A stretch of DNA of 64,000 bases from Bacteroidetes Order II. bacterium (lineage in GTDB: Bacteria; Bacteroidota; Rhodothermia; Rhodothermales; UBA2364): the NCBI GenBank assembly GCA_016788705.1, contig JAEUSQ010000039.1:310001-374000 (forward strand). The letters are read 5' to 3'. The notes under the pieces were generated by a model. It was not told the origin of the DNA, made no database searches, and saw only the letters and a program-made list of their open reading frames with translations. The translations under genes were made by a program, and so were the position numbers. Below, one piece after another: positions 9,838-18,227 of this stretch. Position 1 is the first letter of the stretch. Each line of letters opens with the position of its first letter.

Positions 9838-10069
9838 GTGGTATCCATTGGGGTGCTAATGTGGCTTTTTAGCATATGGACGCCCTGTTCAAAAACATAG
9901 CGCCGCGCATTATTCGGTTTAGTCATGTAAAAATACGTTTCGGTCTGGGTATTGATGACTGCACTTTTATAAGGCAGCGTGTTTATGTTGATTGTGGTTA
10001 TAGAGACCATTGATGCAGCCACCAAACCATTAGGCCACAAAAATGTGACCTAATTGATGTCATAACCTT

Positions 10070-10975
10070 TTAGCAATCTGGCCGATTTTCGAGCGCTTTC
10101 CGGACGATGGCTTCCACCTGTTTGCGTTCGGTTTCTGGCATAGGCAAACGTGGTTCCCGAACCAAGGCATCGTTTTCTTTACCAGAAACCAAGGCTTCGG
10201 TAAACTTGATGTAATGCACAAAACGTGGGGTCACATCAAGATCTAACAGAGGACGAAACCAGCGATAAAGGGCGACCGCTTCTTGTACCCGTCCGGCCAT
10301 TGCATGTTCATAAATGGCCACGGTTTCTTTGGGAAAAGCACAAACAAGCCCGGCCACCCAACCAATGGCCCCCGCCAACAGGCTTTCGAGGGCGATATTG
10401 TCCACACCAGTAAAAATCTGGAAGCGATTGCCGCACTGGTTTAGAACGTCGGTAACGCGGCGCACGTTGTCGGAGGATTCTTTTAGGGCGACCAATTGCG
10501 GAACCTCGGCCAATTCGGCAAACATAGCAGGGGTTACATCCACTTTATATGCCACCGGATTGTTGTACACCATAATGGGAACGGATGCGGCTTTCCCTAC
10601 AGTTTTAAAGTGATGCATGGTTTCGTGGGCTTCTGCCGGATAGCGCATTGGTGGCAATACCATAAATCCATTCGCACCTAATTTTGTGCCCGCGTCCATA
10701 AACTGAATCACGGCTTTTGTGGTTGTTTCCGCCACGCCTGAAAGCACCGGAATGCGGCCATCGGCCACACGAAGCGCAATTTTAAGGGTCTCTAATTTTT
10801 CCTCGGTGGTCAGGCTGGCATTTTCGCCCAATGAGCCATTTACGATAATGCCATGTACGCCAGCAGCCATTTGTTCGGCGAAATGCTGTTCCATACGGGC
10901 TATATCTAACGAAAAATCAAGGGTAAACTTGGTGGTTACGGCAGAAAAAACGCCCTGCCACGGGGTTCCATTCAT
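10070..10975 (-). CDS. DapA-family lyase/deaminase, probably 1-pyrroline-4-hydroxy-2-carboxylate deaminase
   Basis: A TIM-barrel aldolase of 301 residues in the DHDPS/NAL superfamily. The GSLGENASLTTEEK segment, YNNP with the catalytic Tyr, and the Schiff-base Lys in LVALKESSDNVRR are visible. Members of this subfamily deaminate the cyclic imine of D-hydroxyproline to 2-oxoglutarate semialdehyde. I favour this over DapA or N-acetylneuraminate lyase because the other three enzymes of hydroxyproline catabolism are in the window (aldehyde dehydrogenase at 3490, dehydrogenase at 21473, epimerase at 22745). It lies 11 bases after the amidohydrolase gene on the same strand. The reaction assignment is by context; the superfamily is certain. 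Confidence 0.82.
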   Translation of the reverse strand: MNGTPWQGVFSAVTTKFTLDFSLDIARMEQHFAEQMAAGVHGIIVNGSLGENASLTTEEKLETLKIALRVADGRIPVLSGVAETTTKAVIQFMDAGTKLGANGFMVLPPMRYPAEAHETMHHFKTVGKAASVPIMVYNNPVAYKVDVTPAMFAELAEVPQLVALKESSDNVRRVTDVLNQCGNRFQIFTGVDNIALESLLAGAIGWVAGLVCAFPKETVAIYEHAMAGRVQEAVALYRWFRPLLDLDVTPRFVHYIKFTEALVSGKENDALVREPRLPMPETERKQVEAIVRKALENRPDC

Positions 10976-10986
10976 GAGGATATAAA

Positions 10987-12270
10987 TTAAGGTTTAGGGG
11001 TTACTGAAAGGTACACTTTACCACCTTTCATGACGAATGTAATTTTTCTAAGGGCTGAAATCTGTTGGGTAGGGTCTCCTGAAACGGCAATCAGATCGGC
11101 CCATAAGCCCGGTTTTATGCTGCCCAGTTCTTTTTCCAATCCAAATATTTCCGCGTTTCCGGAAGTTGCACTGATCAAGACATCCAAGGACGACATTCCA
11201 TACTCGACCATCAATTCCATTTCTTTGACATTCTCACCGTGCGAAAACACGCCTACGTCGCTTCCCATACAGATAGGGACTTTTTGGCGGAGGGCACTTT
11301 TAAAACTTTCCTTTTTGGCTTTTACACGAGGCGGATCCGGTTCTTGGCCTTTTTTCCAACCGGAATACTGAGCAAGGGCCTCTACAGCCGCCAAGGTGGG
11401 GCACAGTGCAACATGGTTATCGGCCATGTATCGGAAAACATTTTCGGTTCCAGCATCCCCATGTTCAATGGTTTGTACCCCCGCTTCGATGGCCCGCCGC
11501 ATTCCTTCCTCGGTAGCCGCGTGAGCGGACACCCTTCTTCCCGCACCCGAAGCCGTTGTAACAATATAACGCCACTCTTCCGAAGTAAACGTCGGTTTTG
11601 CTTCTCCACGCAGCCCCCATCGGTAGTCGGCATAAATTTTGATCCATTCCGCGCCCCTGCCTATCTGGTCCCGAACAACTTGTATCAACCGCTGGCCATC
11701 GGCCTCTTCCGCCCCTTGTGGCACGTCATAGGCAAACCCCGTCCGTTTTGGGGCATAGGAACCTGTTGCAATAATGGCTTTTGAAGCAATGATAAGTCTG
11801 GGACCCGCGATAATTCCTTTTTCAAGGGCTTGTTTAAGCCCCCAATCCGCATATCCAGCCCCCTCCGTCCCCAAGTCTCTTAGCGTGGTAAATCCGGCCA
11901 ATAAACTCGCTTTCAAGTGGTTGGTTGCCCGAGCTACCCGCTCCGCTTCGGTCTCGTTCAGCACTTGTTCATTCCACGTGGTTTCGTTATAGGGATGGAG
12001 CAATACGTGGCTGTGACCCTCAATTAATCCGGGCAACAAGGTTTGGTTAGGTAAAGAAATTTGCTGTGTCTCTTTATCAATTTCAAGCTCCGCAATGGGG
12101 CCAACTCCCACAATACGATCTTCTTTTATCAAGACTCCCCAGCCCTTACGAATCATGCTATGACCATCAAACAACTGGTCTGGAAATAACAAGATGGACT
12201 GTGCCTGTGCAGGAAGCACGAGGGCTAACATAAAAATGAAGCATACAAAAATTCGGTTTACCATGCGCAT
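10987..12270 (-). CDS. Secreted metal-dependent amidohydrolase (imidazolonepropionase/prolidase-like)
   Basis: A 427-residue protein. The N-terminal signal peptide (FVCFIFMLALVLPAQAQ) has a probable cleavage after AQA. Amidohydrolase landmarks are LLPGLIEGHSHVLLHP with the first metal ligands, the carbamylated-Lys candidate in EWIKIYAD, VSAHAATEEGM, TIEHGD, and MGSDVGVFSHGEN with the catalytic Asp. It ends with IKPGLWADLIAVSGDP. Related enzymes of this branch cleave Xaa-Pro or acyl dipeptides, which would suit a hydroxyproline-using cell, but the substrate is not shown by sequence. The second ATG two codons downstream (12264) is an equally good start. It is followed at 11 bases by the DapA-family gene, probably one transcript. 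Confidence 0.88.
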   Translation of the reverse strand: MRMVNRIFVCFIFMLALVLPAQAQSILLFPDQLFDGHSMIRKGWGVLIKEDRIVGVGPIAELEIDKETQQISLPNQTLLPGLIEGHSHVLLHPYNETTWNEQVLNETEAERVARATNHLKASLLAGFTTLRDLGTEGAGYADWGLKQALEKGIIAGPRLIIASKAIIATGSYAPKRTGFAYDVPQGAEEADGQRLIQVVRDQIGRGAEWIKIYADYRWGLRGEAKPTFTSEEWRYIVTTASGAGRRVSAHAATEEGMRRAIEAGVQTIEHGDAGTENVFRYMADNHVALCPTLAAVEALAQYSGWKKGQEPDPPRVKAKKESFKSALRQKVPICMGSDVGVFSHGENVKEMELMVEYGMSSLDVLISATSGNAEIFGLEKELGSIKPGLWADLIAVSGDPTQQISALRKITFVMKGGKVYLSVTPKP

Positions 12271-13114
12271 TCGGTCCAGTCAAATGGGTTGGAGTGAGCC
12301 AGCAAAATACAACAGACAACCGCATAAAGCCAATGAAGGGTGTTTTCTCTATGGATTACCTAATCATTTTAAAAAAGCAAGCGTTTTTTTACGATAACCG
12401 CTTAAGAAATGAAGATGGTTCTCGTTTATCGCCTACCCTCTTTTCACAAGACACGACAAAAAATCAAGATAAACCATGCCTGAATAAACGTTTCATATCC
12501 ACCAGTGCGGTTCTTTTGGGATAGATAAACAAACAAGCTCTTGGTCATGACTTTTTTTGAAGGAAGAAAAATACTATTGTATTCTTCATTTAAAATCACA
12601 AAAAATCTAAGTACATGACAAAAAATATATACCTACTATTTTTACAGACTATATGAAAATATTTATCTAAAAGACCGCCTACATCCGGAAGCATACAAAA
12701 AAACCGGCACATCGTCCGGCTTTCTTGTATTCCCTTTTCCCATTATTCCTCAAACTTCTTTTTCCGGGTAGCCCAACCCGTTGGTGGTGGGTGGGTGGTG
12801 ACTTAGTGGTCGTGTGGTTTGGTATTGGGGGCTGATTCCTGCGGGAAGTTCGTAGTATCTTGTCCCATCGGAATCAACTTTCGGTGAGAAGTTCCAAAAA
12901 CCAGCCCACTCCCGCTCGTTTACTTCGATGAACCCCGTCCAACTTTCGATAAATTATCCATTAACTACGATTAACTATAAAATAACTACCGGCTCCAAGG
13001 CTATCACTATGCCACAAGACCAATGACGTAGGGCTATTCGGATGTAAAGGGGATTTCTCTACAGCCCAGAAACGGACGGCATACAAAAAACGACTCGGTG
13101 GACAAATACCGGAA
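12271..13114. other. Non-coding stretch upstream of the repeats; no gene recognised
   Basis: Nothing protein-like is recognised on either strand. Part (about 12540-12690) is AT-rich. A weak CCGG-armed hairpin at 12704-12719 is flanked by an A-run, which would act as a T-run on the minus strand. Around 12780-12830 there is a G/T-rich low-complexity stretch on plus. The left end should carry the promoter of the amidohydrolase. Confidence 0.45.
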
Positions 13115-13739
13115 GGCGTTGCGCGGAGGGGAGTTCCCCGCTTGAAAAGGGGCGTAGCCCTGACCTCTTCGTAGGAAACAAGGAATCAAGAAACGAAAAA
13201 GGGGCGTAGCCCTGCAATCTTCGTAAGAAACAAGGAACCATGACACGAAAAAGGGGCGTAGCCCTGACCTCTTATATCCAATCACCACCCTTTGAAAAGA
13301 CCCACACGCAACCGGACAAAAACCTTCGGCGCGACGAAACTTCCCGACGTTGCGCGGGGGATGTACCTTCTGTTGAGACGCAACCTAAAAAAGGAGCGTA
13401 GCCCTGACCTCTTCGTAGGAAACAAGGAATCAAGAAACGAAAAAGGGGCGTAGCCCTGACCTCTTATATCCAATCACCACCCTTTGAAAAGAACCGCACG
13501 CAACCAGACAAAAACCTTCGGCGTGGCGAAGCATCACGAAGGCGTTGCGCGGAGGGGAGTTCCCCGCTTGAAAAGGGGCGTAGCCATTTTTTGTAGGAAC
13601 CACGAAACCAAACCACGTAGAACGGAAATCTTATATCCAATCACCACCCTTTGAAAAGACCCACACGCAACCGGACAAAAACCTTCGGCGTGGCGAAGCA
13701 TCACGAAGGCGTTGCGCGGAGGGGAGTAGTTCCCCGCAC
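13115..13739. repeat. Tandem and nested direct repeats left of the CRISPR array
   Basis: At least three repeated elements are interleaved. Element a starts CTTATATCCAATCACCACCC at 13271, 13463 and 13630 and continues through CCTTCGGCG. Element b reads GGCGTTGCGCGGAGGGGAGT and occurs at 13115, 13541 and 13708, with a weaker copy near 13350. Element c is the phrase GGGGCGTAGCC with flanking AAAA, seen near 13149, 13200, 13252, 13394 (variant), 13444 and 13575. In two places c is followed by a shared CTCTTCGTAGGAAACAAGGA tail. Together they form larger units spaced 192 and 167 bases apart. Open frames on the minus strand simply translate the repeats (GLRPF-type peptides) and are not taken as genes. 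Function unknown. Confidence 0.9.
13708..13739. repeat. Hybrid of repeat element b and the CRISPR repeat end (degenerate terminal repeat)
   Basis: This copy of element b differs from the copies at 13115 and 13541, which read GGGGAGTTCCCCGCTTG. Here it reads GGGGAGTAGTTCCCCGCAC, and the last 16 bases (13724-13739) equal the 3' end of the CRISPR repeat. It is followed by 40 bases and then the first full repeat, so it is placed where a degenerate terminal repeat would lie. Confidence 0.75.
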
Positions 13740-13779
13740 GCAAAACTAAGGTTTGAAGCCTTGAATAAAGAGGCCATAA

Positions 13780-14820
13780 GTTTTGATCTCTTCACTCAGA
13801 GTAGTTCCCCGCACGCTTTATGAGACATCTTCTTTGGTCTGGAGACTCTAGTTTTGATCTCTTCACTCAGAGTAGTTCCCCGCACCTTTTAACGCCAAAA
13901 TCCAGAAATACAGCGACGGAAGTTTTGATCTCTTCACTCAGAGTAGTTCCCCGCACAAGTCGCTGGAAAAGAACTTTGCCGCGAGGTAGGAATGTTTTGA
14001 TCTCTTCACTCAGAGTTGTTCCCCGCACCTGCAGAAAATGTTTATGAAACTTTTGTTGAAAGAGAGTTTTGATCTCTTCACTCAGAGTTGTTCCCCGCAC
14101 GCAACAGGTCTTACAACTACCTGGTACGCATTTGGAGTATTGTTTTGATCTCTTCACTCAGAGTTGTTCCCCGCACGAATGCATGAACTTTACTGTAAAC
14201 TATAAAACATATGTTTTGATCTCTTCACTCAGAGTAGTTCCCCGCACACCTTGGAAGTTTCTGGATGGGGAGGAATAAACGGACAGTTTTGATCTCTTCA
14301 CTCAGAGTAGTTCCCCGCACTCTGTGTGAAAACCCTTTCGCCGAGATTCATACTAAGTTTTGATCTCTTCACTCAGAGTAGTTCCCCGCACCGGGTATAC
14401 GTACAGTCGACGTTGCGACTGCATAAGGATGTTTTGATCTCTTCACTCAGAGTAGTTCCCCGCACAAGTTTCAAAAAAAATGTCATAGTCTCTCGACGAT
14501 TTAGGTTTTGATCTCTTCACTCAGAGTAGTTCCCCGCACCAGTTGAGCGACGGTTCCGAGCTGCCAGTGACAGAGATGTTTTGATCTCTTCACTCAGAGT
14601 AGTTCCCCGCACTTTGATCGCCAATCCTAAAGTTTTCATCCTAAGTTTTGATCTCTTCACTCAGAGTAGTTCCCCGCACGTTTTGACTGGGTGCGATTCT
14701 AGCACACCTCAAGGTTTTGATCTCTTCACTCAGAGTAGTTCCCCGCACGCGTAAAAGCTTTCATGAAAGCCCTAATAACACAACCGTTTTGATCTCTTCA
14801 CTCAGAGTAGTTCCCCGCAC
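13780..14820 (-). CRISPR. CRISPR array, 15 repeats of 35 bp and 14 spacers; no cas genes in window
   Basis: Repeats begin GTTTTGATC and end GTTCCCCGCAC on the plus strand. Starts are 13780, 13851, 13922, 13994, 14066, 14142, 14213, 14286, 14357, 14431, 14505, 14578, 14645, 14714 and 14786. Spacers are 36, 36, 37, 37, 41, 36, 38, 36, 39, 39, 38, 32, 34 and 37 bases and are all different. Repeats 4-6 share one change (GAGTTGTT for GAGTAGTT); the others are identical. I place transcription on the minus strand. There the repeat ends ...ATCAAAAC, the usual kind of 3' end, the degenerate copy lies at the left, and the AT-rich leader-like sequence lies at the right. Uneven spacer length argues against type I-E or II and is compatible with type III or some type I systems. 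No cas gene is seen in the 64 kb. Confidence 0.97.
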
Positions 14821-15105
14821 AGTAGGCAAAAAATCCCATTAAAAAACAAGCACTTACGGGGAAGAATGGACGAATCAACAAAAAAAGTACGGGGAACCGT
14901 CCGGAAAGTACAAAAAAAGCCCCCAAAGATGCAAGAAACGGCTTTAAAAAACAAGTACTTAATTGGTACGGACGAATGTAAAATGGCCTAAGTACTTATT
15001 TTTTAAAGACAATCCTTTATTTTCAGAAATGACATTTTCGATTCGTCCATTCGCACCAAATCTATGCACCACACCAATGCATTCCAACACCCAACATTTT
15101 TGCAA
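14821..15105 (-). promoter_or_regulatory. Putative CRISPR leader with repeated and inverted 18-base elements
   Basis: AT-rich, gene-free stretch abutting the undamaged right end of the array. The element TTAAAAAACAAGTACTTA occurs at 14944-14961, with one change at 14839-14856, and inverted with one change at 14989-15006. A separate 13-base exact inverted pair (GAATGGACGAATC) lies at 14864-14876 and 15040-15052. Leaders carry the promoter and integrase signals for arrays; that role here is inferred from position and base content only. Confidence 0.5.
14942..15008. repeat. Inverted repeat, 20-base arms with one mismatch
   Basis: Arm 14942-14961 (CTTTAAAAAACAAGTACTTA) pairs with 14989-15008 across a 27-base loop. 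It could form a hairpin or be a palindromic binding site. It lacks the GC-rich stem of a terminator. Confidence 0.8.
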
Positions 15106-15106
15106 C

Positions 15107-15139
15107 AAAAAAGCGGCCCCATCTGGAGCCGCCGTAAAA
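15107..15139 (-). terminator. Rho-independent terminator of glmS
   Basis: Read on minus: GCGGCTCC, loop AGAT, GGGGCCGC (8-bp stem with one G-T pair), then a run of T's. It lies just downstream of the glmS stop. Confidence 0.88.
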
Positions 15140-15156
15140 AAATCGGTACACGATCA

Positions 15157-17192: not shown

Positions 17193-18227
17193 TTACGCCG
17201 CTAAGGCTGGCTCGGGGAGTGTACGTCCAACAATTTGGGCAATCATCCGCAATTCCTGCATCATTTCACGGAACTGATTAAAATAGAGTGATTGCGGGCC
17301 GTCACTCTTCGCTGTTGGTGGGTCTGGATGGATTTCAATCATCAACCCGTCGGCCCCTACCGCAACACCTGCACGAGCGAGCGGTGCCACCTTATCACGA
17401 ATGCCCACACCATGACTGGGATCTACGATGATGGGTAAATGGCTTTTTTGCTTAATCACTGGAACCGCCGAAAGGTCTAATGTATTGCGGGTATAGGTCT
17501 CGAAAGTACGAATTCCGCGTTCGCAGAACATGACGTGTGGATTTCCATTGGCGATGACATATTCCGCGCTCATGATCCATTCTTCAAACGTCGAAGAAAG
17601 TCCTCGTTTCAGAAAGATGGGCTTATCCACCTTTCCCAATTCACGCAGCATGGAGAAGTTTTGCATGTTTCGGGCACCAATTTGCAAAATGTCTGCATAT
17701 GTGGCAACAATTTCGATTTGGTTAATTTCCATGACCTCGGTAATCACCTTGAGTCCATGACGATCGGCGGCCTCGCGCATCATCTTAAGACCAGGAACGC
17801 CCAACCCTTGAAATGCGTAGGGAGAAGAACGTGGCTTATAGGCCCCACCGCGTAAAACTTGTGCGCCCGTTGCCGCAACCACAGCGGCGGAAGCTTCTAT
17901 TTGCTCCTCACTTTCTATAGAACAAGGCCCAGCCATGATAATCAATTCATCACCACCAACCGAAAGGCCATCCACGTCTATCACTGTATTCTCCTTCTTC
18001 CAAGTTCGGCTGGCAAACTTATAAGGCGTAGTGACCCGATAGACATCGGAGACACCCTCTAAAACCTTGATATGCCGGATGTCGAAATCCGGTTTTACGC
18101 CAATGGCGCCTAAGACTGTTTGACGAACTCCGGTAGAACGGTGAACATCAAATCCATAGCCATTAAGTTTCCCGATCACCTCTTCTACTTGTCGTTCCGG
18201 GGCATCGGCGTTCATGATTACGACCAT
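17193..18227 (-). CDS. aroF: 3-deoxy-7-phosphoheptulonate (DAHP) synthase, type I-beta with N-terminal regulatory domain
   Basis: First enzyme of the shikimate pathway, condensing phosphoenolpyruvate and erythrose 4-phosphate. The protein has 344 residues. The N-terminal ~85 residues ([21 protein letters not shown]) form the ferredoxin-like regulatory domain typical of the Thermotoga-type enzyme. The TIM-barrel catalytic domain follows, with [52 protein letters not shown] and [11 protein letters not shown], which include the metal and substrate ligands. The N-terminal domain suggests feedback control by an aromatic amino acid; which one cannot be told. A 111-base gap separates it from lptB upstream, so it may have its own promoter. 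Gene symbols vary in this family. Confidence 0.95.

What the first reader, a model, noticed from the sequence alone, without database searches (positions are those of the whole stretch)
13708..13814. CRISPR left end fused to a dispersed repeat
The last copy of element b carries GAGTAGTTCCCCGCAC, identical to the last 16 bases of the CRISPR repeat. Its sister copies have only GAGTTCCCCGC followed by TTG. A 40-base spacer-like piece then leads to the first full repeat. This looks like recombination at the short GAGT/GTTCCCCGC homology, trimming the old end of the array.
Basis: partly seen in the sequence, partly recalled or inferred. Interest (0 to 1): 0.55.

Follow-up and report, generated by a model that had tools for sequence, protein, structure and literature searches.

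The report
Trimmed old end of orphan CRISPR
The oldest end of a bacterial immune-memory (CRISPR) array that has lost its partner genes has been cut off inside its last repeat and joined to a neighbouring repeated DNA element; this is a clear but ordinary scar, most likely of a deletion.

Summary
13724-13739 is identical to the last 16 bases of the 35-nt repeat. A 40-nt piece follows (the 14 other spacers are 32-41 nt), then the first full repeat, all in register. The leader, 89% identical to those of a congener, is on the right (14821-~15066). The array is therefore read on the minus strand, and 13724-13779 is its old (trailer) end: a terminal repeat that has lost its 3' 19 nt, plus its spacer. 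The crossover must lie in GAGT (4 nt); using the longer shared AGTTCCCCGC would have left a different junction.

In congener G002 the same site beside glmS holds array, complete Cmr/CorA/NrN/RT-Cas1 type III-B locus, array; both arrays end there in full repeats. Sister genome G001 has an element-b relative at this site and no CRISPR. The window's genome keeps the array, but no Cas10, CorA or RT-Cas1 was found, so the array is an orphan. Best reading: a short-homology deletion joined element b to the array, removing its distal part. It may also have removed the cas genes, which is unproved.

Terminal repeats truncated at the 3' end and orphan arrays are both described in print. Interest is low to moderate.

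The parts
13616..13727 (+). Last copy of element b (112 nt), cut at GAGT
   Evidence: 93% identical to 13449-13560; last 54 nt exact
13724..13727 (.). GAGT shared by element b and the CRISPR repeat: the crossover
   Evidence: sequence comparison
13724..13739 (-). Truncated terminal repeat (5' 16 nt in crRNA sense)
   Evidence: exact match to the repeat end
13740..13779 (-). Terminal (oldest) spacer, 40 nt
   Evidence: in register, length within 32-41; unique in 21 genomes at up to 3 mismatches
13780..14820 (-). CRISPR array: 15 full 35-nt repeats and 14 spacers
14821..15066 (-). Leader
   Evidence: 219 of 245 aligned positions identical to the leader of G002 arrays; right border approximate
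13112..13141 (+). Sister end of element b with the usual continuation GAGTTCCCCGCTTG
13449..13567 (+). Sister copy of element b with the usual continuation
13257..13368 (+). Sister copy of element b with another end (GGGGGATGTACC)
   Evidence: 81% over 112 nt; sequence

Best explanation
The array is an orphan of a type III-B (RT-Cas1/CorA-associated) CRISPR system at a conserved site downstream of glmS. Its old end was removed by an illegitimate, short-homology deletion. One breakpoint lay in the GAGT of the last element-b copy, the other in the GAGT of a CRISPR repeat. Everything between was lost: at least the 3' 19 nt of that repeat and whatever lay further from the leader. The surviving 16 nt now form a truncated terminal repeat. 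Shown: the junction, its register, the leader side, the missing repeat half, no cognate cas genes found. Inferred: that it was a deletion, and its mechanism (replication slippage or end joining at GAGT, perhaps helped by the nearby shared 10-mer AGTTCCCCGC).
For: Exact 16-nt repeat end in register with a spacer-sized piece. Abrupt change from element b (54 nt exact to a sister) to repeat. Leader on the far side, conserved with G002. Other half of the repeat not found to the left. Both G002 arrays end in full repeats. 4-nt microhomology at the break: 1.6% of breakpoint pairs do as well; shared 10-mer beside it: 10 of 2000 simulations. No CorA, Cas10 or RT-Cas1 found in the window's genome.
Against: No relative with the state before the deletion is held. 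Four bases of microhomology alone can be chance. The canonical element end does not fold better than shuffles (z 0.36). G000 and G002 share no spacer, so the lost part cannot be reconstructed.
Confidence: 0.8

Rival explanations
1. The terminal repeat was already degenerate, and the element-b tract came to lie beside it by its own insertion or amplification; no array was deleted in that event.
For: Terminal repeats often lack or vary in their 3' end (PMC8047081). The b tract is amplified here.
Against: Element b stops exactly inside bases shared with the repeat. No remnant of the other repeat half left of it. G001, without CRISPR, has an element-b relative at the same place, so the element need not have come to the array.
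Confidence: 0.12
2. Element b gained an AGT duplication by slippage and resembles the repeat by chance.
For: Element b and the repeat share AGTTCCCCGC anyway; a 3-nt duplication would give 14 of the 16 bases.
Against: The last two bases AC also match; the next 40 nt are spacer-sized and in register and do not continue as the sisters do.
Confidence: 0.03
3. Assembly artefact joining two repeats.
For: Both sides are repeats; the assembly has 66 contigs.
Against: All 19-, 21-, 25- and 31-mers across the join are unique in the window, so a false join would rest on an overlap of 16 nt or so. The join lies inside a 376-kb contig.
Confidence: 0.04

Closest known systems
Terminal (trailer-end) CRISPR repeat with truncated 3' end (PMC8047081, section 7)
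   Same: Last repeat, far from the leader, keeps its 5' part and has lost its 3' part
   Different: Here the partner of the junction is identified: a local repeat element sharing bases with the CRISPR repeat
Orphan CRISPR array lacking cas genes, such as CRISPR2 of Enterococcus faecalis (PMC5491264, start of abstract)
   Same: Array and leader kept, cognate cas genes missing
   Different: Type III-B repeat; the full locus survives at the same site in a congener; no complete cognate set in trans was found
CorA/NrN-associated type III-B (Cmr) system with RT-Cas1 (PMC10600005, passages)
   Same: G002 carries Cmr1-6, Cas10b, CorA, DHH/NrN-like, RT-Cas1, Cas2 and Cas6 between arrays with almost the same repeat and leader
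   Different: The window's genome has only the array

Membership tests
CRISPR array | Identical repeats separated by unique spacers of similar length | tested here: met
   15 repeats of 35 nt, spacers 32-41 nt
CRISPR array | Leader next to the newest end | tested here: met
   Right flank conserved with the G002 leaders, 89.4%
Truncated terminal repeat | Partial repeat at the end far from the leader, 3' part missing in crRNA sense, in register | tested here: met
   13724-13739, then a 40-nt spacer-sized piece
Orphan array | No cognate cas genes in the genome | tested here: met
   No Cas10, no CorA, single Cas1 is of I-B, one RAMP protein, a Cmr1 beside a broken Cas6 near a contig end. The assembly is in 66 contigs, so absence is not absolute.
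CorA/NrN type III-B system | Cmr effector genes, CorA and NrN next to the array | tested here: not met
   Present beside the G002 arrays, not found in G000
Short-homology deletion junction | Microhomology at the join and a relative with the undeleted state | tested here: inconclusive
   4-nt homology met; no undeleted relative held

The most novel reading that the evidence does not exclude
One short-homology deletion between a local repeat element and a CRISPR repeat removed an entire CorA/NrN/RT-Cas1 type III-B locus together with its second array and the distal part of this array (the stretch from first repeat to first repeat is 13.5 kb in G002). The broken terminal repeat would then be the scar of the cas loss, and in sister G001 a separate deletion ending at the same kind of element would have taken everything.
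Probability: 0.3. Interest if true: 0.45.

Novelty: new member of a known kind. Interest (0 to 1): 0.27.

Why it matters
Orphan arrays are known, but how their cas genes went is seldom readable from the sequence (my judgement). Here a three-genome series at one site (full locus, array only, none) with a base-resolved scar gives a testable case of CRISPR loss through short-homology recombination with a neighbouring repeat element. It does not point to a new mechanism.

Tried and rejected
Insertion of element b into a repeat: looked for the other 19 nt at 10001-13723 on both strands with up to 6 mismatches, none. Shared spacers between G000 and G002 arrays: only short chance-level matches, so the arrays cannot be matched spacer by spacer. 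Leader remnant in G001: the stretch between element and terminator is no more like the leader tail than its shuffles (fraction 0.356), so G001 neither shows nor excludes a former array. Protospacers: phage and plasmid collections gave only weak matches (best E 1 and 4), and exact viral-contig scans with pieces of 2 of the 15 spacers gave none. The repeat, exact but for two free positions, in the species-genome collection: 0 matches, with the tool's caveat that near records may be left out; in viral contigs 0. The repeat with up to 3 mismatches in 244 genomes of the class: only G000 and G002. Rfam on 12300-15156: two matches, both below gathering score. The 12 RT-Cas1 loci (35-44% identity in the best segment) were not studied further.

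Full report
What is there. The window carries 15 full copies of a 35-nt repeat at 13780-14820, with 14 spacers of 32-41 nt. To their left, 13724-13739 repeats the last 16 bases of that repeat without a mismatch. The 40 nt between (13740-13779) fit the spacer lengths and occur only here in 21 genomes at up to 3 mismatches. The sequence up to 13727 is element b: 93% identical to 13449-13560 over 112 nt, the last 54 nt exact. In two sisters the element goes on GAGTTCCCCGCTTGAAAAGGGGCG; a third sister (13257-13368) ends otherwise.

Which end it is. The 246 nt right of the array match the G002 leader at 219 of 245 aligned positions (89.4%; 162 of the first 175). For comparison, glmS nearby is 82.7% identical between the two genomes. 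The two G002 leaders are identical to each other over 247 nt. So new spacers entered on the right, the array is read on the minus strand, and 13724-13779 is its oldest end. In crRNA sense the terminal repeat keeps its 5' 16 nt and has lost its 3' 19 nt. The minus-strand repeat ends ATCAAAAC, which looks like a usual crRNA 5' handle (recalled, not tested).

The junction. Element b (GGGGAGT|TCCCC) and the repeat (CAGAGT|AGTTCCCC) share GAGT at the break and, three bases out of step, the 10-mer AGTTCCCCGC. A crossover inside the 10-mer would give GAGTTCCCCGCAC; the observed GAGTAGTTCCCCGCAC needs the crossover in GAGT. Microhomology of 4 or more is reached by 1.6% of breakpoint pairs between 13101-13600 and the array, and the local similarity by 1.2% of 40,000 random pairs. 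A shared word of 10 arises in 10 of 2000 Markov simulations. This is suggestive, not compelling. All 19-, 21-, 25- and 31-mers across the join are unique in the window. Folded as single-stranded DNA, the junction stretch forms a hairpin (-9.8 kcal/mol, z -2.0, 10 of 200 shuffles fold as well), but the canonical sister end does not stand out (z 0.36).

Relatives. Of 99 genomes searched with the intergenic DNA, 3 match (own included), all of this genus. By glmS the window's genome is closer to G001 (88.6%) than to G002 (82.7%); G001-G002 is 81.6%. G002 has, at the same place next to glmS, an array of 8 repeats, then RT-Cas1/Cas2, NrN-like and CorA, Cas10b, Cmr1 and Cmr3-6, and Cas6, then an array of 28 repeats. 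Its repeat differs by one base. Both G002 arrays end in full repeats. G001 has a degenerate element-b relative directly beside the glmS terminator and no CRISPR there. The repeat was found in only 2 of 244 genomes of the class, G000 and G002.

The array is an orphan. The window's genome (66 contigs, 99.9% complete) has one Cas1, belonging to a I-B locus with Cas3, Cas8b, Cas7 and Cas4. No Cas10 palm domain, no CorA relative and only one RAMP protein were found. That one is a Cmr1, 67% identical to a stretch of another type III locus in G002 (C1), beside a Cas6 fragment with stops upstream and a transposase-like ORF (my reading of the sequence) near a contig end.

Interpretation. Deletion by short-homology recombination is the simplest account: abrupt join, shared bases at the join, missing half not found on the far side. 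How much was lost is not known. If the ancestor was built like G002, a break between element b and the array next to glmS would have removed the first array and all cas genes at once (13.5 kb from first repeat to first repeat in G002); the join would then be the scar of the cas loss. The alternative is stepwise loss (first array-array recombination or decay, later a small trim). No held genome separates these.

Known or new. The review PMC8047081 (section 7 read in full; [quoted passage not shown] SpacerPlacer (PMC11472070, passages) reports lower deletion frequency at both ends and favours repeat misalignment as the cause of deletions. Orphan arrays are known (PMC5491264, start of abstract). 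CorA/NrN type III-B systems signal with SAM-AMP (PMC10600005, passages). Four searches, judged by titles and abstract starts only, showed no paper evidently on a junction between a dispersed repeat and a CRISPR repeat; that is a narrow search. I rate it a new example of a known kind.

Noticed in passing
13994-14028, 14066-14100, 14142-14176: Three consecutive inner repeats carry T for A (GAGTTG); repeats on both sides carry A. New repeats copy the leader-end one, so a return to A hints at recombination or off-end insertion inside the array (inference).
   Followed up: no
L065 reverse complement, about 1454-1485 and 17407-17438 (G002): A 32-nt glmS-terminator-like hairpin sequence stands on both sides of the G002 CRISPR-Cas island, as if the island had entered by an event that duplicated the flank.
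   Followed up: partly
14864-14881/15035-15052 and 14933-14961/14989-15017: Nested inverted repeats inside the leader (89% and 83% complementary), in a leader that is more conserved than glmS between G000 and G002.
   Followed up: no
L120:13477-14778 (G000:C18, near the contig end): Remnant of a second type III-B locus: a Cmr1 gene and a broken Cas6 fragment, with a transposase-like ORF downstream.
   Followed up: partly
13145-13267 and loci L025-L034: GGGGCGTAGCCC-type intergenic repeats, dispersed and mosaic in this genome, often near contig ends.
   Followed up: partly
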